Positions 29,391 to 36,810 of a DNA stretch of 64,000 bases are shown piece by piece. The stretch spans positions 1,984,001 through 2,048,000 of the forward strand of contig NZ_FXAX01000001.1 of the NCBI RefSeq assembly GCF_900177805.1. Direction: 5' to 3'. Under the pieces are notes generated by a model. The model was not told the DNA's origin and searched no databases. It saw nothing but the letters and a program-made list of their open reading frames with translations. A program made the translations under genes and the position numbers. The stretch is from Fibrobacter sp. UWB13 (GTDB taxonomy: Bacteria; Fibrobacterota; Fibrobacteria; Fibrobacterales; Fibrobacteraceae). Position 1 is the first letter of the stretch; every line of letters begins with the position of its first letter.

Positions 29391-30743
29391 ATGCCTCTAG
29401 ACATCACCGTTGGCCATTTAAACATGCCAAACCAAACAAACATTCCTACAAAAAAAAACATATCAGAAAGAAAAGACTTGTTGTCCTTCTCACCAACCCA
29501 AATCATCTACTATGGTGTTCCCGGCAGCGGAAAAAGCCATACAGTCGATGACGAAATCAACAAGAAACTAAGTAAATATAACGAAAGAAAAACAGAGGAC
29601 AACAAGATTACGTATGACAATCAGGTAACCCGTGTAGTCTTCCATCCTGATTACGGAAATGCGGATTTTATTGGGCAAATAATGCCGAAAATCCGAGAAG
29701 GTCATGGAGTAGATTATGTGTTCAAGCCAGGTCCATTCTCGCAGATTTTGCGAAAAGCATATCTTAATTCAGACAAACCCTATTTCCTTATTATAGAAGA
29801 AATCAACCGAGGAAACGCGGCCGCTATTTTTGGCGAAATGATCCAGCTGTTGGATCGAATTAAAGAGAACAAAGATAAAAGTGGATATAGTACAGGTTGG
29901 AGTTCCTACTCTATATGGAATGATGATGTTAATGACTATATCCGAGATATCAATGCTTATAACAAATTTGAGCATAGCGGTTGTGTAAAAGTCAACCATC
30001 CTAAAGATATGCTAGATGGCAACGGAAATCCAGCTGACTCTCCTGATGAGAACGGCAAAAAAGAAATCGATTTTTCTTCAGCGACTTCTTACAGTTCACT
30101 AGAATTAATTCTCCAGGGATTTGATTATAAGCAAACATTCCGGGAATCTACAGCAATTCGCCTCCCGCCTAACCTCTCTATCTACGCAACAATGAACACT
30201 AGCGACCAGAATGTGTTTACGCTTGATAATGCGTTCCAGCGTCGTTGGGAAATGAAACAAATATCTAACGATTTGGCCCATGATGATTCCACCGCAGACA
30301 CAACAAAACAGTATGATCAAATCATCGGCGATACAAATGTCAAATGGGGAGAATTCCGCGAAGTAATAAATGAAATAATCATGCAGTCTGCCGAAGAAAA
30401 TGGTTTATCCAGTATGGAGGACAAACGCCTTGGCGGGTGGTTTATCACACCCAAGAAACTCGATGATAATGAAAATTCAAAGGCTGTTATCACAAAAAAT
30501 GCTTTTGCAGAAAAGGTTCTCAAATACCTCTGGGATGACGCATTTAAGTTTGACCGAAAAGCGCATTTTGGCAATGTGAAAACACTTGAAAAACTTATTG
30601 AAAACTTTGATACAAAAGGCTTCAATATTTTCGCTGATACAGATATAAAAAAACTGCAGGAGATAGCTTCGACTAAGACCAACAATGATGGTTCTATAAA
30701 TAATTCGACAAGTACCCCCACACAGAATGACAACAACGGATAA
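29391..30743 (+). CDS. McrB-like AAA+ restriction motor (LlaJI R1-type)
   Basis: 450 aa. Walker A GVPGSGKS (42-49), Walker B/McrB signature FLIIEEINRGNAAAIFGEM (from 132), sensor region YATMNTSDQNVFTLDNAFQRRW (about 265-286). These are the McrB GTPase-type AAA+ motifs. Only about 30 residues precede the core, so the N-terminal DNA-binding domain found in McrB and LlaJI R1 is absent. An insertion with Asp/Asn/Gly (about 160-235) divides the core. The C-terminal tail is Asn/Thr/Ser-rich. It is expected to form the nucleotide-driven ring that loads the nuclease encoded next. AGGAG lies upstream of the ATG; its last 17 bp overlap the nuclease gene. Confidence 0.88.
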   Translation: MPLDITVGHLNMPNQTNIPTKKNISERKDLLSFSPTQIIYYGVPGSGKSHTVDDEINKKLSKYNERKTEDNKITYDNQVTRVVFHPDYGNADFIGQIMPKIREGHGVDYVFKPGPFSQILRKAYLNSDKPYFLIIEEINRGNAAAIFGEMIQLLDRIKENKDKSGYSTGWSSYSIWNDDVNDYIRDINAYNKFEHSGCVKVNHPKDMLDGNGNPADSPDENGKKEIDFSSATSYSSLELILQGFDYKQTFRESTAIRLPPNLSIYATMNTSDQNVFTLDNAFQRRWEMKQISNDLAHDDSTADTTKQYDQIIGDTNVKWGEFREVINEIIMQSAEENGLSSMEDKRLGGWFITPKKLDDNENSKAVITKNAFAEKVLKYLWDDAFKFDRKAHFGNVKTLEKLIENFDTKGFNIFADTDIKKLQEIASTKTNNDGSINNSTSTPTQNDNNG

Positions 30744-32025
30744 ATACATTCCTCAACAGGAACGCCCGAAACTTAGCGAAGTTTGCGTCTATGGAGGCAA
30801 ACAAAGCGATGAGTTCGCTGGGATCCGTTATGAAAACGGATCGTTAAAGGTGTATTTTCCTTTTGGTTATTCTAAGCCAATAGATGACGAAAAAGAATAT
30901 CGCAAGGATATATTGAATCTTATTTCAGTTCTTGCAGCCTATTCCAAAGAAAGTAAAAGTGTTGACCAGAATCGTCAATTAAACGAAGACGAAGTTCAAT
31001 TTCCGATTCATGCTTACCTTCATGTTTTCAATTATTTCCTAAACTTTGGTTACTACATTGAAAACGAGATGACATACAAAAGGGCTTCGAGTGGGAAAAT
31101 TAATTGGCCAAGAACGATCAAACAGATTCGCCCCAAAATTGCGGGCGAGCGTCCAAACGAATCGGTTGTTTATCTCGATTTCATAACAAAAAGGTCGAGC
31201 AACAACGAAAATGAAATCATAACGCAAATTCATCAATATTGTGTTTATGAGAGCTACGAGAAAGTCGGATGCTTGTTCGGGTATTTCCGACCAAAAAAGC
31301 CAACCATTCCCTTTAATGCAAAGATGTTCGCCGCCATTTTGAAAAATAAGATTTCAAGAACATTCAACGAAAAGCACATCCTACTTTTTAGAAATATGCT
31401 TGACATCGTTTGTTACATGGGCAAACGGAATGACAATCGAAAAGCAAGTTTCGGCACTAATGATTTTGAATATGTTTGGGAAGGCCTGATTGATGATGTT
31501 TTTGGTGTCAAAAAAAGTGAAAAAGAAAAATATTATCCGCATTGTGCTTGGCATATCAGTGATAAAGATAGCGATGCAGAATGGAACGAAACAAAAAGAA
31601 CGGCATTACGCCCCGACACAATAATGTTATCCGCAAACAATGATGCAAAAATTTTTGTTCTCGACGCGAAATACTATCAATATGGGGAAAATCGCGAGTC
31701 CAAGAGATTACCCGGAACAGGTTCAATCATTAAGCAAATCGCTTACGCAGAATTTATAGAAGCAATGCGCCAACAGAAACCGAAGATTGCCCAAGGCGAT
31801 ATCTACAACGCATTCATCCTACCTTACGCAACAACATTTAGCGAATCAAAATATCCAATGGAAAATTTCGGATATGCAGATTGCAATTGGAAAAATACAG
31901 AAGCAAAAACATACCATAAAATCTATGGAATATTGCTAGATGTCCGATCCATCATGCATCGTCACCCGAATCATTCCGACAAAGACATAGCCGAACTCGC
32001 CGCAAGAATTGAAGGCAGAATTTAA
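30727..32025 (+). CDS. LlaJI-family restriction nuclease (McrC-like, R2-type)
   Basis: 432 aa. The C-terminal half has a PD-(D/E)xK site: ALRPDTIML (D297), then IFVLDAKYYQ (D313-x-K315), preceded by YVWEGLIDDVFG, the helix with a possible acidic residue. The layout of a large N-terminal part, then WE..IDD.., then RPD, then DAKYY, is that of LlaJI-type (PF09563) and McrC-like nucleases that need a McrB-like partner. The gene is coupled to R1 by a 17-bp overlap. It would cleave DNA lacking M1/M2 methylation at the site. The first copy of the repeated leader element starts 17 bp after its stop. Confidence 0.82.
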   Translation: MTTTDKYIPQQERPKLSEVCVYGGKQSDEFAGIRYENGSLKVYFPFGYSKPIDDEKEYRKDILNLISVLAAYSKESKSVDQNRQLNEDEVQFPIHAYLHVFNYFLNFGYYIENEMTYKRASSGKINWPRTIKQIRPKIAGERPNESVVYLDFITKRSSNNENEIITQIHQYCVYESYEKVGCLFGYFRPKKPTIPFNAKMFAAILKNKISRTFNEKHILLFRNMLDIVCYMGKRNDNRKASFGTNDFEYVWEGLIDDVFGVKKSEKEKYYPHCAWHISDKDSDAEWNETKRTALRPDTIMLSANNDAKIFVLDAKYYQYGENRESKRLPGTGSIIKQIAYAEFIEAMRQQKPKIAQGDIYNAFILPYATTFSESKYPMENFGYADCNWKNTEAKTYHKIYGILLDVRSIMHRHPNHSDKDIAELAARIEGRI

Positions 32026-32041
32026 TACACTAATTCCGTTA

Positions 32042-32207
32042 TGTAAAATTTTCTTACTCCCCTAGCCAGACTTTTCGATATTAGGTACATTAATGCAGCA
32101 CGTGATTCTCTGTCAAATGGAGAATCGCGTCTTTTTTTATTCCGAAAATTCTGAATAAGGGGACGCCTCTAACATCAAACGGTCACAAATGGTGACCACT
32201 CGGAGGC
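32042..32207 (+). repeat. Structured intergenic repeat, copy 1 (before toxin-antitoxin)
   Basis: It starts TGTAAAATTTTCTTACTCCC and ends at GGAGGC. Parts in order: a hairpin ACGTGATTCTC / GAGAATCGCGT followed by CTTTTTTT (32098-32138), which looks like a terminator for the R-M operon; a second inverted repeat TTATTC / GAATAA; then GGGGACGCCTC...GGAGGC, where GCCTC can pair with the Shine-Dalgarno GGAGG; inside that is GGTCAC-AAAT-GGTGACC. Copies 2 and 3 are at 32920-33065 and 34603-34727. Confidence 0.85.
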
Positions 32208-32221
32208 AAAAAGCACCTATC

Positions 32222-32542
32222 ATGAATGAAAATATTGACAACTTGTCAAAATTTGATTACATTATAAAAAGATACACGGTCAGAATAACACATAAGGCTT
32301 TAAAGAACCTTGATAAAATGCCCAAGCCAGAACAGGAAAAGTTCTTCCGTTTGAAAACGGCTTTGGAAACAAGAGGTCCTGAACAGCCCTCGTTTATGAA
32401 TTATTCTAAACTCGGTATGAACATGTATCATTGCCATTTGTCAAGAAAATGGGTTGCATGTTGGAAAAATGAATCGGGAACTTTAACTATAGAGGTCTAC
32501 TATGTTGGCAGTCGTGAAAGCGCCCCCTACGCACGGCACTAA
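32222..32542 (+). CDS. RelE/ParE-family toxin
   Basis: 106 aa from the ATG at 32222 (the frame also has an ATG at 32189 within the repeated leader). The IIKRYTVRITHKALKNLDKM start, the basic PKPEQEKFFRLKTAL helix and the C-terminal KWVACWKNESGTLTIEVYYV strand are the RelE/ParE toxin layout; the family cleaves ribosome-bound mRNA or poisons gyrase. The GGAGG of the leader is about 15 nt upstream of this ATG, which is far, and it can be masked by GCCTC pairing, so expression may be low. It overlaps the antitoxin gene by 41 bp; toxin-first order is typical of HigBA-type pairs. Confidence 0.82.
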   Translation: MNENIDNLSKFDYIIKRYTVRITHKALKNLDKMPKPEQEKFFRLKTALETRGPEQPSFMNYSKLGMNMYHCHLSRKWVACWKNESGTLTIEVYYVGSRESAPYARH

Positions 32543-32918
32543 GAAGCCGGTATCCTTCAAGATCGAAGGAGAACAGATTCCCGACTTCGTTTTGGGGATG
32601 CTCAAGTACATGTTTCCGAAATGTGTCAAGATTTATGAAACGCCGCTCAAAAAACGTCATGATATGGATGAGGAATCGGTTGTGCTCGAAAGTACCGATT
32701 GGAACAAGAGAATGTCCGCGGAAATGACACCAGGCAAGGCCATCCGTGCCGACCGTGGGCTTCGCGGATGGACGCAGAATGTTCTCGCGCAAAAACTCGG
32801 CATCTCTATACAGAACCTTTCTGCGATGGAACATGACCGTCGTCCGATATCCAAGAAAATGGCCGCAAAGCTGTCTCTAATTTTCGACGTTCCACCCGAA
32901 ACATATTTCAAGTTCTGA
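32502..32918 (+). CDS. HigA-like antitoxin with XRE helix-turn-helix
   Basis: 138 aa. The C-terminal half is a Cro/C1-type helix-turn-helix: GKAIRADRGLRGWTQNVLAQKLGISIQNLSAMEHDRRPISKK; split here as start GKAIRADRGLRGWTQNVLAQ and recognition part KLGISIQNLSAMEHDRR. The N-terminal about 70 residues should bind the toxin. It is translated from within the toxin gene end (41-bp overlap). Antitoxins of this type also repress their own promoter. The second repeat copy follows 2 bp after the stop codon. Confidence 0.85.
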   Translation: MLAVVKAPPTHGTKKPVSFKIEGEQIPDFVLGMLKYMFPKCVKIYETPLKKRHDMDEESVVLESTDWNKRMSAEMTPGKAIRADRGLRGWTQNVLAQKLGISIQNLSAMEHDRRPISKKMAAKLSLIFDVPPETYFKF

Positions 32919-32919
32919 C

Positions 32920-33065
32920 TGTAAAATTTTCTTACTCCCCTAGCCAACATTTTCGATATTAGGTACATTAATGCAGCACGTGATTTTCTGTCAAATGGAG
33001 AATCGCGTTTTTTTTTATTCCGTGATTTTGGAATAAGGGGACGCCTTCAACTAATCAAAGGAGGC
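32920..33065 (+). repeat. Structured intergenic repeat, copy 2 (before AlbA_2 protein)
   Basis: Nearly identical to copy 1 for its first 120 bp (TGTAAAATTTTCTTACTCCC start; CGATATTAGGTACATTAATG core; terminator-like hairpin and T9 run; TTATTCC / GGAATAA; GGGGACGCC). Its 3' part is shorter: GCCTTCAACTAATCAAAGGAGGC, which keeps the GCCT/AGGC pairing but lacks the inner GGTCAC hairpin. Confidence 0.85.
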
Positions 33066-33068
33066 GCA

Positions 33069-34607
33069 ACGGCTCTATCTAATATCGACATCGCTACAAT
33101 TCTTTCAATGGAAGAATCGCAGACTTTTGACCGCAAAAGCATTAATATTGCTCCGCGTGATTTTTCCAACCATGTCTGCGCATTCGCCAATGCCGATGGC
33201 GGCATTATCGTAGTCGGCATTTCGGACAAGACCAAACGCATAGAAGGCGTTGATTCTCGGGAACGCCAAGTAAATGAGCTGTTGCGAGTACCAATGGACT
33301 TCTGCACGCCAACGGTTCCATTCGTTCATGAATTTGTGGATTGTGTAGATTCAAACGGCAAGGCAAACCATGTTCTTGTTTTCCATATAGAAGCGAGTCC
33401 GCTTGTCCACGAGAACCAGGCGCATGACGCCTATATACGGATTGGAGACAAATCAAAAATTCTTTCTTACGAGGACCGCATGACGCTTAGCCTAGACAAA
33501 GGATTGCGCTCGTTTGAAGATATTTTGGTTCCAGATTCAAGTTACGACGATATTGATGAAGTTTACCTCAAGGAGTATCTGCAAATGGTAGGATACTCAA
33601 GAAGCCCTCGGGAGTATCTATTGCAAAACAAGAACTTTGCCAAGGAGAAGGCCGGCGAAATACGGCTAAGCGTTGCAGCTATATTACTATTCGGAAAGAA
33701 TCCGCAGCAGTTCTTTCCTCGCGCTCGTGTACGCTTTATCCGCTATGAGGGTACCGAGGAAAAATTTGGAACTGAGATGAATGTCATCAAGGACGTAATC
33801 TTTGAGGGGCGAATTCTTGAACAGATTCGGCAGGCTGTTGCCTATATTCAGACGCAAATCAAGGAACGTACGTATTTGACCAAGGGCGGAATTTTTACCA
33901 CAGAACTTGAGTATCCTGAATTTGTACGTACAGAACTAGTTGTCAATGCGGTAACACATAGGGATTACTCTATTCGCGGAACAGAAATTCAAATCAAGAT
34001 GTTCGATGATCACTTGGTTGTCGAGTCACCAGGCAATTTGCCGAGTCAAGTAAAAATTGACAAGATTAGGAATGCACATTTTGCACGAAATTCACACATA
34101 GCGGAGTACCTGAAAGATTACAAGTATGTTAAAGATTTTGGAGAAGGCGTTGACCGAATTTATCGAGAAATGGAGGCGTCAGGTTTACCTGTGCCTGAAT
34201 ACCGTCAAGATTCATTCATTTTGAAGGTCATTGTCAAAAATTCAGGTTTTGCCCTTCAGAAAACGGGATTTGAGTCCGAAAAAACGGGATTCACCCTTCA
34301 AAAAACGGGAATTGAATCTGAAAAAACGGGATTTGCTCTCCAAAAAATGGAAATCGCATCTATTGTATTAAATTCAGGTTTTGGGAAGACAATAAAAGAA
34401 AAAATGAAAAAAATCATTGATGAAATAGACGAAAATCAAGTAATTGCAGCAAAGGATATTATGAAAATTTTAGCGTGTAAGCCAACAGCCGCAACAGAGA
34501 TGATTAAACGAATGCGTTCGCTGAATCTTTTGAAGAAAATAGAAGGAGTAGGACCAGGTCGTTATTCCTTAAATTTTCTCTCAATAACCACACCGAAGGA
34601 CTTGTAA
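33069..34607 (+). CDS. AlbA_2 / HATPase_c_4-type ATP-binding protein
   Basis: 499 aa if started at the ATG 33108, 512 aa if the in-frame ACG at 33069 is used. The ACG stands 4 nt after a GGAGG exactly where copy 3 of the same leader has its ATG, and the 13 extra codons (ALSNIDIATILS) complete the family's usual N-terminus before E.Q.F..K; so a mutated or non-standard start is likely. Domains: AlbA_2/Schlafen-like (about 1-125; FANADGGIIVVGI), then a GHKL-like ATPase part (about 245-370; ELVVNAVTHRDYS, GNLPSQ, KDFGEGVDRIY). A linker of five 7-residue repeats (34248-34352) leads to a winged-helix end. Such COG2865 proteins are usually regulators or defence-associated; function unknown. Confidence 0.75.
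   Translation, partial: TALSNIDIATILSMEESQTFDRKSINIAPRDFSNHVCAFANADGGIIVVGISDKTKRIEGVDSRERQVNELLRVPMDFCTPTVPFVHEFVDCVDSNGKANHVLVFHIEASPLVHENQAHDAYIRIGDKSKILSYEDRMTLSLDKGLRSFEDILVPDSSYDDIDEVYLKEYLQMVGYSRSPREYLLQNKNFAKEKAGEIRLSVAAILLFGKNPQQFFPRARVRFIRYEGTEEKFGTEMNVIKDVIFEGRILEQIRQAVAYIQTQIKERTYLTKGGIFTTELEYPEFVRTELVVNAVTHRDYSIRGTEIQIKMFDDHLVVESPGNLPSQVKIDKIRNAHFARNSHIAEYLKDYKYVKDFGEGVDRIYREMEASGLPVPEYRQDSFILKVIVKNSGFALQKTGFESEKTGFTLQKTGIESEKTGFALQKMEIASIVLNSGFGKTIKEKMKKIIDEIDENQVIAAKDIMKILACKPTAATEMIKRMRSLNLLKKIEGVGPGRYSLNFLSITTPKDL
34248..34352 (+). repeat. Five 21-bp in-frame tandem repeats
   Basis: Units encode FALQKTG, FESEKTG, FTLQKTG, IESEKTG, FALQKME, so two alternating heptad types. 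They lie in the linker between the ATPase-like and winged-helix parts of the AlbA_2 protein. Near-identical AAAACGGGA cores point to slippage-made copy number. Confidence 0.8.
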
Positions 34608-34727
34608 AATTTTCTTACTCCCATGGCGCAAGCGCCAAATGGAGAATCGCGTTTTTTTATTCCGTGATTTTGGAATAAGGGGACGCCTCTAACATCAACC
34701 GGTCGCAAATTGTGACCACATGGAGGC
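34603..34727 (+). repeat. Structured intergenic repeat, copy 3 (before small gene)
   Basis: Same ends as copies 1 and 2, but the first hairpin is replaced: after TTACTCCC comes ATGGCGCAAGCGCCA (perfect GGCGC/GCGCC stem) and then the common AAATGGAGAATCGCG-T7. The 3' part matches copy 1 (CTCTAACATCAA, CGGTCGC...GTGACC, GGAGGC). The repeat begins inside the AlbA_2 stop codon region. Confidence 0.85.
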
Positions 34728-34731
34728 TATT

Positions 34732-35076
34732 ATGGCAGAAAACAAAGAAGAATTTGAGTTGCCAAAGGAACTCTTGGAATCAATAGCGGGGCTTAATGAA
34801 CTTATGAGCCAGCAACAGGATCAAGCAGCAGCAATGATGTACAGATTGATGTTCCGCCATGAACGGAATCTCCATCTACTAGACCGCTATTCAGATATCG
34901 TACTTGAAGGCGTTTCTGGCATGGGTAGCGAGTTCGCGAAAGAGGATTACAGGAATTTTTTGCAATACCTGTCGTATGTTATTCCGGACGAATACGCTCC
35001 GCATAAGGAAATGTACGAAGAAGAGCTCAGAATCGCCGAAGATGATGATGAGTCTGCAGATAAGGAGGTCACGTAA
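34732..35076 (+). CDS. Small acidic protein of unknown function
   Basis: 114 aa from the ATG at 34732, six bases after the GGAGGC of leader copy 3. Acidic and helical; Met/Gln-rich middle (LMSQQQDQAAAMMYRLMFRH) and an acidic tail (EDDDESADKE). No known family recognised. Its stop overlaps the ATG of a broken downstream gene (TAATG) with a perfect AAGGAGGT site, so in the intact ancestor it was translationally coupled to an AlbA_2-type gene. Confidence 0.6.
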   Translation: MAENKEEFELPKELLESIAGLNELMSQQQDQAAAMMYRLMFRHERNLHLLDRYSDIVLEGVSGMGSEFAKEDYRNFLQYLSYVIPDEYAPHKEMYEEELRIAEDDDESADKEVT

Positions 35077-35447
35077 TGGATCTTGTAAAATAGATGTTCA
35101 AGTACGGGCGTCTTTATTCCGGTGTTGATCCCGAGTTTATCGAAGATGATGTATTCCGCATTATCCAGCCCCTGAACGAAAACTATTCATTCGATGCAAA
35201 GATTGCAAACGGAATAGGTGGTCAGAAGACTACACAGAAAACTACACAGAAAACTACACAGAAGACTACACAGAAAATTCTTGCTGCGATGGAGGATAAC
35301 CCCAATGTGACTATATCCGAATTGTCGGAAATTTGCGGAATAACTGTTGATGGTGTAAAATGGCAATTGAGAAATCTCACAAAAACCGGACGCATCGCCC
35401 GCATCGGTGGAGATCGTGGTGGTTATTGGGAGGTGTGCGGAAAGTAA
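35076..35447 (+). pseudogene. Remnant of an AlbA_2-type ATP-binding protein gene
   Basis: An ATG at 35076 with a perfect AAGGAGGTCACGTA leader encodes only MDLVK before an in-frame TAG; directly after it, in the same frame, an ATG at 35094 opens 117 codons that read as the C-terminal part of an AlbA_2/HATPase protein: MFKYGRLYSGVDPEFIEDDV, then a TTQK repeat linker and a winged helix (ISELSEICGITVDGVKWQLR). The central ATPase and AlbA_2 parts are missing, so an internal deletion and a stop are inferred. The C-terminal piece might still be translated. Confidence 0.7.
35226..35273 (+). repeat. Four 12-bp tandem repeats encoding KTTQ
   Basis: AAGACTACACAG / AAAACTACACAG units, in frame in the AlbA_2 remnant. 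The count in a linker of this protein class is probably set by replication slippage. Confidence 0.85.
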
Positions 35448-35466
35448 CTTTTCTATCTTTCACGTC

Positions 35467-36810
35467 ATGCAAAACGAAAACTCTCAAGAAAAGATCAAAG
35501 GCAACCCGATTGCCCTTTTGCCTATCGCCGTATTCCTGGTACTTTATCTGGGTCTCGGCATCACGTTTGAATATGTCCTCAAGATCCCGATGGGATTTTA
35601 CAACATACCGATTGTCGCGGCATTCTTGGTGGCGATTTTCGTGGCTTGCGTACAGAACCGCAAGCTGAATTTTGACCACAAGATGAATGTGATGGCAGGC
35701 GCACTTGGCGACCGCAATATTTTCTTGATGATCCTGATTTTCCTTTGCGCGGGCATTTTCGCAGGGATTCTCGGGCGTTCAAGCGCCTCAGCGGCGGCAT
35801 ACTTGCTCTTGGATTTCATTCCGGCGCAGTTCGCGGTGGTAGTGCTGTTCGTTGTCGCGGCGTTTGTCTCTACGGCGATGGGTACGTCTGTTGGCACGAT
35901 TGCAGTGGTCTCCCCGATTGCGGTCGAAGTCGCACAGATGGCGGGCTTTGGCGTTCCATTCTGCGTAGCGACGGTGATTGGCGGCGCAATGTTCGGCGAC
36001 AACTTGAGCTTTATTTCGGATACGACGATTGCGGCTACATCTACGCAGGGTTGCAAGATGAAGGATAAGTTCCGTGTGAACTTTCTGGTGGCAGCTCCGG
36101 CGGCACTTCTCGCGATTATCATCATCACGGCAATTTCGTTTGTGACCAAAGCAAATACGGTTGCCGAAAACTCCTACAATCTCGTACAACTTATTCCATA
36201 CGTTCTCGTATTGGTACTTGCGCTTACGGGCATCAACGTTTTTGCAGTGTTGCTCATCGGCATTGTTGCGGCATCCATCATTATGGTGGGTTCCGGCACA
36301 CTCGACATGATTGGTCTTTTGCAGAACATCGGGAACGGCATTTCGGGAATGTACGAGACAATTCTCGTCGCAGTTCTGGTGAGCGCCTTGTGCGGGCTCA
36401 TTCGCATTCACGGCGGTTTCGCAGCTCTGTTAGACTTTATCCATAAAGTGTTCAAGGGACACCGCAGCGGTCAAGTGGGCGTTGGCCTCTTGGTGAGCGC
36501 ACTCGACATCGCAACGGCAAACAACACAGTCGCCATCGTGATGGCAGGTCCGATTGCAAAGCAGATGGGCGACGAATACAGAATCTCGCCGAAAAAGACA
36601 GCTTCGCTTCTGGACATATTCAGCTGCGTCGTGCAAGGCATTCTGCCTTATGGCGCACAAATGCTCGTAGCGCTCGCCGCCATTTCAACAGCTATCCCAA
36701 ATGCAAACATCAGCGCGTTTGACCTCATTCCCTACATGTTCTATCCATTCCTGTTACTTGTCAGCGTACTTATATTCATTGCAATTTCTCCGCGCAAGAA
36801 CAAACACTAA
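35467..36810 (+). CDS. NhaC-family sodium/proton antiporter
   Basis: 447 aa from the ATG at 35467; the frame extends to 35407 but this is inside the preceding remnant's end. About 11-12 membrane helices. Family motifs: STAMGTSVGTIAVVSPIAVE and GGAMFGDNLSFISDTTIAAT with the conserved Gly-Asp-Asn and Ser-Asp-Thr, and in the second half ALDIATANNTVAIVMAGPIA. It exchanges Na+ (or another monovalent ion or small molecule) for protons at the inner membrane; the exact substrate is not readable. GC is back to the genomic level, so it marks the right edge of the AT-rich island. Followed by a terminator. Confidence 0.88.
   Translation: MQNENSQEKIKGNPIALLPIAVFLVLYLGLGITFEYVLKIPMGFYNIPIVAAFLVAIFVACVQNRKLNFDHKMNVMAGALGDRNIFLMILIFLCAGIFAGILGRSSASAAAYLLLDFIPAQFAVVVLFVVAAFVSTAMGTSVGTIAVVSPIAVEVAQMAGFGVPFCVATVIGGAMFGDNLSFISDTTIAATSTQGCKMKDKFRVNFLVAAPAALLAIIIITAISFVTKANTVAENSYNLVQLIPYVLVLVLALTGINVFAVLLIGIVAASIIMVGSGTLDMIGLLQNIGNGISGMYETILVAVLVSALCGLIRIHGGFAALLDFIHKVFKGHRSGQVGVGLLVSALDIATANNTVAIVMAGPIAKQMGDEYRISPKKTASLLDIFSCVVQGILPYGAQMLVALAAISTAIPNANISAFDLIPYMFYPFLLLVSVLIFIAISPRKNKH

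What the first reader, a model, noticed from the sequence alone, without database searches (positions are those of the whole stretch)
32042..34727. Triplicated ~125-165-bp structured leader in front of three defence cassettes
Seen: three copies (32042-32207, 32920-33065, 34603-34727) beginning TGTAAAATTTTCTTACTCCC right after a stop codon and ending GGAGGC right before the next gene. All contain a hairpin plus T7-9 run, a TTATTCC/GGAATAA inverted repeat, GGGGACGCC, and a GCCT(C) that can pair with the Shine-Dalgarno. In copy 3 the first hairpin is replaced by a different perfect stem (TGGCGCAAGCGCCA), so structure is kept while sequence changes. Candidate roles: a terminator/anti-SD leader controlling each module, a recombination seam for swapping modules, or both. 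I know no described element of this form.
Basis: partly seen in the sequence, partly recalled or inferred. Interest (0 to 1): 0.72.

Follow-up and report, generated by a model that had tools for sequence, protein, structure and literature searches.

The report
Shared RNA leader of Fibrobacter defence genes
Fibrobacter bacteria put the same roughly 165-base control region, a promoter followed by three RNA hairpins that should hold expression low, in front of many unrelated phage-defence genes, and the region seems to be a joint at which those genes are exchanged.

Summary
The three copies are real, and they belong to a dispersed family. A covariance model finds the element in 67 of 80 Fibrobacter genomes and two sister genera (about 170 copies) and not in the rest of the phylum. 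Each copy is a self-contained expression unit. It has an A/T-rich UP-like box (TGTAAAATTTTCTTA), -35 TTGCCA, a 17-nt spacer and -10 TACATT. About 7 nt after the -10 comes a 14-15-bp hairpin with a T-run (P1, terminator-like). Next is a hairpin that re-pairs the P1 3' arm and T-run with downstream sequence (P2), then a hairpin that hides the Shine-Dalgarno (P3). P1 and P2 show strong compensatory changes. In 113 of 133 copies the gene starts 3-6 nt after GGAGGC. Those genes are mostly DUF1016/YhcG nucleases, AlbA_2 ATPases, Bro-N/DinD and ORF6N proteins, next to restriction systems. Nearly identical leaders precede unrelated genes, and at one chromosomal site five related genomes carry other leader-headed cassettes. 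Best reading: a doubly attenuating leader that travels with defence cassettes. The inducing signal, the switching step and actual termination are untested. It is not in Rfam.

The parts
32042..32207 (+). Leader copy 1, complete (promoter, P1, P2, P3, SD)
   Evidence: 176 bits to R1
32042..32056 (+). A/T-rich UP-like box TGTAAAATTTTCTTA, copy 1
   Evidence: mean major-base frequency 0.89 in 70 copies
32063..32091 (+). -35 TAGCCA (consensus TTGCCA), 17-nt spacer, -10 TACATT, copy 1
   Evidence: spacing 17 in 117/119, TACATT in 116/119 copies; coordinates
32100..32138 (+). P1: 14-bp stem with 3-nt loop, then C and T7 (terminator-like), copy 1
32127..32166 (+). P2: GCGTCTTTTTTTATTCC pairing with GAATAAGGGGACGC, copy 1
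32165..32207 (+). P3: anti-SD GCCTCT with SD GGAGGC, inner stem GGTCAC/GTGACC, copy 1
32222..32542 (+). Gene after copy 1: small toxin-like protein (named by layout only)
   Evidence: no Pfam match; same leader+gene unit in L087 and L095
32502..32918 (+). HTH (Xre/HigA-like) gene of cassette 1
   Evidence: HTH_3 1.4e-10
32920..33065 (+). Leader copy 2, complete; minimal P3 GCCTTC..GGAGGC without inner stem
   Evidence: 142 bits
32941..32969 (+). Promoter core of copy 2 (TAGCCA-17-TACATT)
32978..33016 (+). P1 and T-run of copy 2
33108..34607 (+). SLFN_AlbA_2 + HATPase_c_4 protein (start possibly ACG near 33072)
   Evidence: sequence
34603..34727 (+). Leader copy 3, decayed: promoter and 5' arm of P1 lost; P2 and P3 kept
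   Evidence: 81 bits; intact homologue in L100
34625..34641 (+). GGCGCAAGCGCCAAATG, remnant of a repeat inserted at the -35 of other leaders
34720..35076 (+). 118-aa protein of unknown family after copy 3
   Evidence: homologue with an intact leader in L100; no Pfam match
35094..35447 (+). 3' remnant of an AlbA_2-type ATPase gene
   Evidence: the L100 gene is 474 aa; deletion at 35091/35092
30727..32025 (+). LlaJI-type restriction endonuclease upstream of copy 1
   Evidence: PF09563 4e-33

Best explanation
The element is a portable expression control unit: a sigma-70-type promoter with an UP-like box, followed by a three-hairpin attenuating leader, placed exactly in front of accessory defence genes. 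Transcription starts just before P1. P1 plus the T-run is expected to end most transcripts after about 40 nt. Transcripts that read through carry their Shine-Dalgarno paired in P3, so translation is held down a second time. P2 shares 5 nt with the base of P1 and 2 nt with the base of P3, so its full form competes with both and could be an 'on' conformation. Leaders recombine and spread with, and between, these genes, which makes the leader a natural seam for exchanging cassettes. Shown: the anatomy, conservation and covariation, gene association, family-wide spread, exchange between unrelated genes, and decay of copy 3. Inferred: start site, termination efficiency, low expression, and switching. 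Unknown: the signal.
For: Promoter: spacing 17 in 117/119 copies, TACATT in 116/119. The same hexamer pair is enriched elsewhere in the genome (48 sites vs 16 control), so it looks like the ordinary promoter of this genus. P1: 8 of 12 pairs with changes on both sides; own arms -18.4 vs swapped -10.3 kcal/mol, better in 54/57. P2: recovered by RNAalifold on an alignment not fitted to it; own strands -18.1 vs -11.7, better in 64/66. P3: 95% paired, own better than swapped in 43/54; SD unpaired probability 0.09 in the full leader, 0.37 when the 5' arm is removed, 0.14 when the P1 3' arm is removed too. The gene starts 3-6 nt after GGAGGC in 113/133 copies. Downstream: DUF1016 39, SLFN_AlbA_2 30, Bro-N 21, ORF6N 8 of 121; upstream genes include restriction enzymes. 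Cross-family leaders and site comparison. No phage or plasmid match; no Rfam match.
Against: No expression data. The T-run is interrupted in many copies (5-7 T of 9), so termination may be weak there. Forcing the base of P2 costs on average 6 kcal/mol, and most of P1 and P2 can coexist, so a true switch is not shown. The idea that the P1 3' arm mimics the SD was tested and got no covariation support. About half of the DUF1016 genes in ten genomes have no recognised leader, so it is not obligatory.
Confidence: 0.66

Rival explanations
1. Plain boundary: P1 is the terminator of the upstream gene and the promoter drives the next gene constitutively; the hairpins have no regulatory role.
For: In 48 of 133 copies a same-strand ORF of at least 100 aa ends within 60 nt before the leader, so P1 could end its transcript; the promoter type is common in the genome.
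Against: It does not explain covarying P2 pairing across the U-tract, nor SD pairing kept in copies with quite different P3 sequences. P1 lies downstream of its own promoter, so it must also affect that transcript.
Confidence: 0.2
2. Primarily a mobile or recombination site (attC-like or MITE-like); structure serves DNA mobility.
For: Homology starts or stops at leader edges (32042-32926 with L087; 30755-32211 with L086); nearly identical leaders before unrelated genes.
Against: Always the same orientation, ending at the SD of a gene; no integron integrase over its cut-off in 8 genomes; no excised or isolated element identified; ordinary homologous recombination between leaders is enough.
Confidence: 0.07
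3. The terminated ~40-nt RNA is itself the product: an antitoxin RNA (type III-like) or a trans-acting sRNA.
For: Promoter - short RNA - terminator - toxin-like gene order resembles type III toxin-antitoxin loci (family knowledge).
Against: One RNA type stands before many unrelated protein families; there are no tandem antitoxin repeats; the conserved SD pairing points to cis control.
Confidence: 0.04
4. ermC-like translational attenuation by a ribosome on a leader peptide in the P1 5' arm.
For: Same four-strand topology (1:2, 2:3, 3:4 with the SD in strand 4).
Against: No leader ORF with an SD is kept across copies; the ATG seen in some copies lies upstream of the predicted start site.
Confidence: 0.03

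Closest known systems
Translational attenuators of erm and cat genes (e.g. ermC; PMC5118997, PMC9178857)
   Same: Consecutive competing helices, the last of which hides the SD
   Different: No conserved leader peptide; P1 also looks like a terminator; shared by many unrelated genes
Classical terminator attenuators (trp/his type)
   Same: Terminator-like hairpin between promoter and gene
   Different: The competing pairing lies downstream of the terminator, so it cannot act as an ordinary antiterminator; it can act only on read-through RNA
JUMPStart/ops leaders controlled by RfaH (PMC6391919)
   Same: One leader shared by many horizontally exchanged loci
   Different: No ops sequence was looked for; here a promoter and SD lock are part of the element and the cargo is defence genes
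Type III toxin-antitoxin loci (ToxIN; PMC8860590)
   Same: Promoter, short RNA, terminator-like hairpin, then a toxin-like gene
   Different: No tandem antitoxin repeats; cargo families are diverse

Membership tests
Intrinsic-terminator attenuator | GC-containing hairpin followed by a U-run between promoter and gene | tested here: met
   Copies 1 and 2: 14-bp stem, T-rich tail; P1 covaries. Not met in copy 3.
Intrinsic-terminator attenuator | Regulated termination in vivo | not testable with these tools
   No RNA data
Translational attenuator (erm/cat) | SD paired with an upstream anti-SD | tested here: met
   P3 95% paired on A2; SD unpaired probability 0.09
Translational attenuator (erm/cat) | Translated leader peptide in strand 1 | tested here: not met
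   No conserved ORF with SD
Rfam families (release 15) | Score at or above the gathering threshold | tested here: not met
   No match in the window, and none up to E = 5 over 32000-34800
Integron attC site | Integron integrase in the genome | tested here: not met
   Best TIGR02249 match 79 bits vs cut-off 265
Integron attC site | attC core sites and bottom-strand fold | not tested
   -
JUMPStart/ops leader | ops element and RfaH-type NusG paralogue | not tested
   -
Type III toxin-antitoxin | Tandem RNA repeats upstream of a ToxN-fold endoribonuclease | tested here: not met
   No tandem repeats seen in the leader; no ToxN-type family among the downstream Pfam matches

The most novel reading that the evidence does not exclude
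The leader defines a defence regulon: a common, still unknown event during phage attack (for example a change in transcription termination, or a factor that binds the 5' arm of P1) shifts P1+P3 to P2 and switches on many unrelated accessory defence genes at once.
Probability: 0.13. Interest if true: 0.88.

Novelty: new variant of a known kind. Interest (0 to 1): 0.64.

Why it matters
Most defence genes are thought of as exchanged with whatever promoters they have. Here a whole bacterial family keeps one standard promoter plus attenuator leader for unrelated, probably costly accessory genes of restriction loci. That makes the control of these genes testable as a regulon, gives a sequence handle to find new defence genes in Fibrobacter, and suggests how cassettes are exchanged without losing expression.

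Tried and rejected
Leader peptide (MQHVILCQMENRVFFYS...): the ATG lies before the predicted start site and the ORF is not kept in the other leader classes. SD-mimic extension of P2 (GGAG or GGAA of the P1 3' arm with the anti-SD): no better than swapped. Calling P2 an antiterminator: rejected because its 3' strand is made after the terminator. Integron: no integrase over the cut-off. Phage or plasmid origin: no match; the ten viral contigs that matched the short promoter pattern have no leader. Other phyla: of the non-Fibrobacter contigs with the pattern only two of a rumen Gastranaerophilales MAG carry the leader, possibly misbinned. rRNA promoter comparison: no 16S gene found in the assembly. 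Literature: no paper on this leader was found; the library is limited.

Full report
OBSERVATION. The three copies exist at the stated coordinates and are not chance. Copies 1 and 2 are about 90% identical over 132-140 bases. Copy 3 shares the first 20 bases and everything from CAAATGGAGAATCGCG onwards, and lacks what lies between.

SPREAD. BLAST and a covariance model built from 20 copies (R1) find the element in 67 of 80 genomes of the genus (38 of 40 near-complete ones), in six copies in the window's own genome, and in two other genera of the same family, but in no other genus among 41 in the phylum. A promoter-core scan of GTDB genomes names the hosts: most of the 65 stretches are Fibrobacter, F. 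succinogenes above all. It is absent from plasmid and phage records and from Rfam.

ANATOMY. From 5' to 3': TGTAAAATTTTCTTA (UP-like); -35 TTGCCA or TAGCCA; 17-nt spacer; -10 TACATT. The same hexamers are common elsewhere in the genome, so this is probably the ordinary promoter. Next P1, a 14-15-bp stem with T-run, beginning about where transcription should start; P2, in which the P1 3' arm and the T-run pair with downstream sequence; and P3, in which GCCTC pairs with the Shine-Dalgarno GGAGGC. Conservation is highest in the promoter, in GACGCCTCT and in TGGAGGC.

STRUCTURE EVIDENCE. On the MAFFT alignment A2, P1 has 8 of 12 pairs with changes on both sides, and the whole P1+P3 structure exceeds all 500 shuffles on all five measures (related sequences inflate this). 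RNAalifold finds P1 and P2 unaided, 15 of 26 pairs with kept double changes. Swap tests: P1 own -18.4 vs swapped -10.3 kcal/mol (54/57); P2 -20.5 vs -15.5 (98/100), or -18.1 vs -11.7 on the core (64/66); P3 -9.7 vs -8.9 (43/54). P2 pair 9 is T-A in 32 and G-C in 25 of 66 distinct cases. Leaders of quite different sequence keep the pairing, e.g. GCGTTTTTGC/GCAAGAACGC, GCGCTTTTGC/GCAAGGGCGC, GCGTTTTCG/CGAAAACGC.

HOW IT MAY WORK. In the full RNA the SD is paired (mean unpaired probability 0.09). Without the P1 5' arm it rises to 0.37, and falls to 0.14 if P2 cannot form either, which fits a chain P1 / P2 / P3 in which P2 loosens the SD. But forcing the base of P2 costs about 6 kcal/mol, P1 and P2 overlap by only five bases, and P2 is made after the terminator, so it can matter only in read-through RNA. 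I therefore hold attenuation (termination plus SD pairing) as likely, and switching as open. All of this is prediction.

GENES. In 113 of 133 copies a gene starts 3-6 nt after the leader. Of 121 downstream proteins (the three window genes included) Pfam finds DUF1016_N in 39, SLFN_AlbA_2 in 30, Bro-N in 21, ORF6N in 8, and single BrnT and addiction-module proteins; PADLOC flags 40 as its candidate family PDC-S02. Upstream genes include LlaJI, type I and type III restriction subunits, AbiH and GmrSD. In ten genomes about half of the DUF1016 genes have a leader, some only as weak matches.

EXCHANGE. Thirty-two of 127 leaders are at least 90% identical over 90% of their length to a leader before an unrelated gene, and for 41 the nearest leader belongs to another family (copy 1's gene was translated one base out of frame there, so it was counted as a family of its own, which could add at most a few of these). 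Window 30755-32211 (LlaJI gene plus leader) matches L086 at 89% and stops 4 nt after GGAGGC; the next gene is DUF1016 there and the small HTH-linked pair here. The unit 32042-32926 matches L087 and L095, whose upstream sequence does not match. At the site before the Na+/H+ antiporter gene (35461-36807) the window and five related genomes hold different leader-headed cassettes: DUF1016 + ORF6N and DUF1016 + AlbA_2 (L086), two DUF1016 (L097), DUF1016 (L093), the 118-aa gene + AlbA_2 (L100), ORF6N (L150).

COPY 3. The homologous leader in L100 is complete. Nine leaders or leader remnants of other genomes have an insert (about 75 bp in eight of them) at the -35 that begins TGGCGCAAGCGCCAAATGCTAGGCTC or close to it. 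Copy 3 has GGCGCAAGCGCCAAATG joined directly to GAGAATCGCG. The simplest history is insertion, then deletion between two CAAATG hexamers (one in the insert, one in the P1 loop), which removed promoter and P1 5' arm. Copy 3 should then depend on upstream transcription and lack the terminator (inference).

LIMITS. MAG assemblies supply many copies; the tree of leaders was not built; E-values of R1 are rough; genes were called by simple ORF rules; the start site is placed by the -10 alone.

Noticed in passing
window 33066-33108: The AlbA_2 gene after copy 2 has ACG GCT CTA TCT... in frame just after GGAGGCGCA, where most cassettes have ATG; the start may be a mutated ATG or ATG 33108.
   Followed up: partly
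window 35064-35447: Fused remnant of an AlbA_2-type ATPase gene: its start (ATGGATCTTGTAAAATAG) is joined to its 3' part, while L100 has the 474-aa gene.
   Followed up: partly
L121, L139, L146, L147, L151, L155, L157: A ~75-bp palindromic repeat is inserted at exactly the same point (-35) of leaders before different genes.
   Followed up: partly
L150, L165, L183, L140 leaders: A second kind of ~70-80-bp insert lies in the T-run after P1, ending in a new T-run.
   Followed up: no
L207, L240: Two contigs of a rumen Gastranaerophilales MAG carry full leaders with Fibrobacter-like genes: transfer or misbinning.
   Followed up: partly
window 34237-34362 and 35223-35282: Short in-frame tandem repeats inside the AlbA_2 ATPase gene and the AlbA_2 remnant, before the winged HTH.
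   Followed up: no
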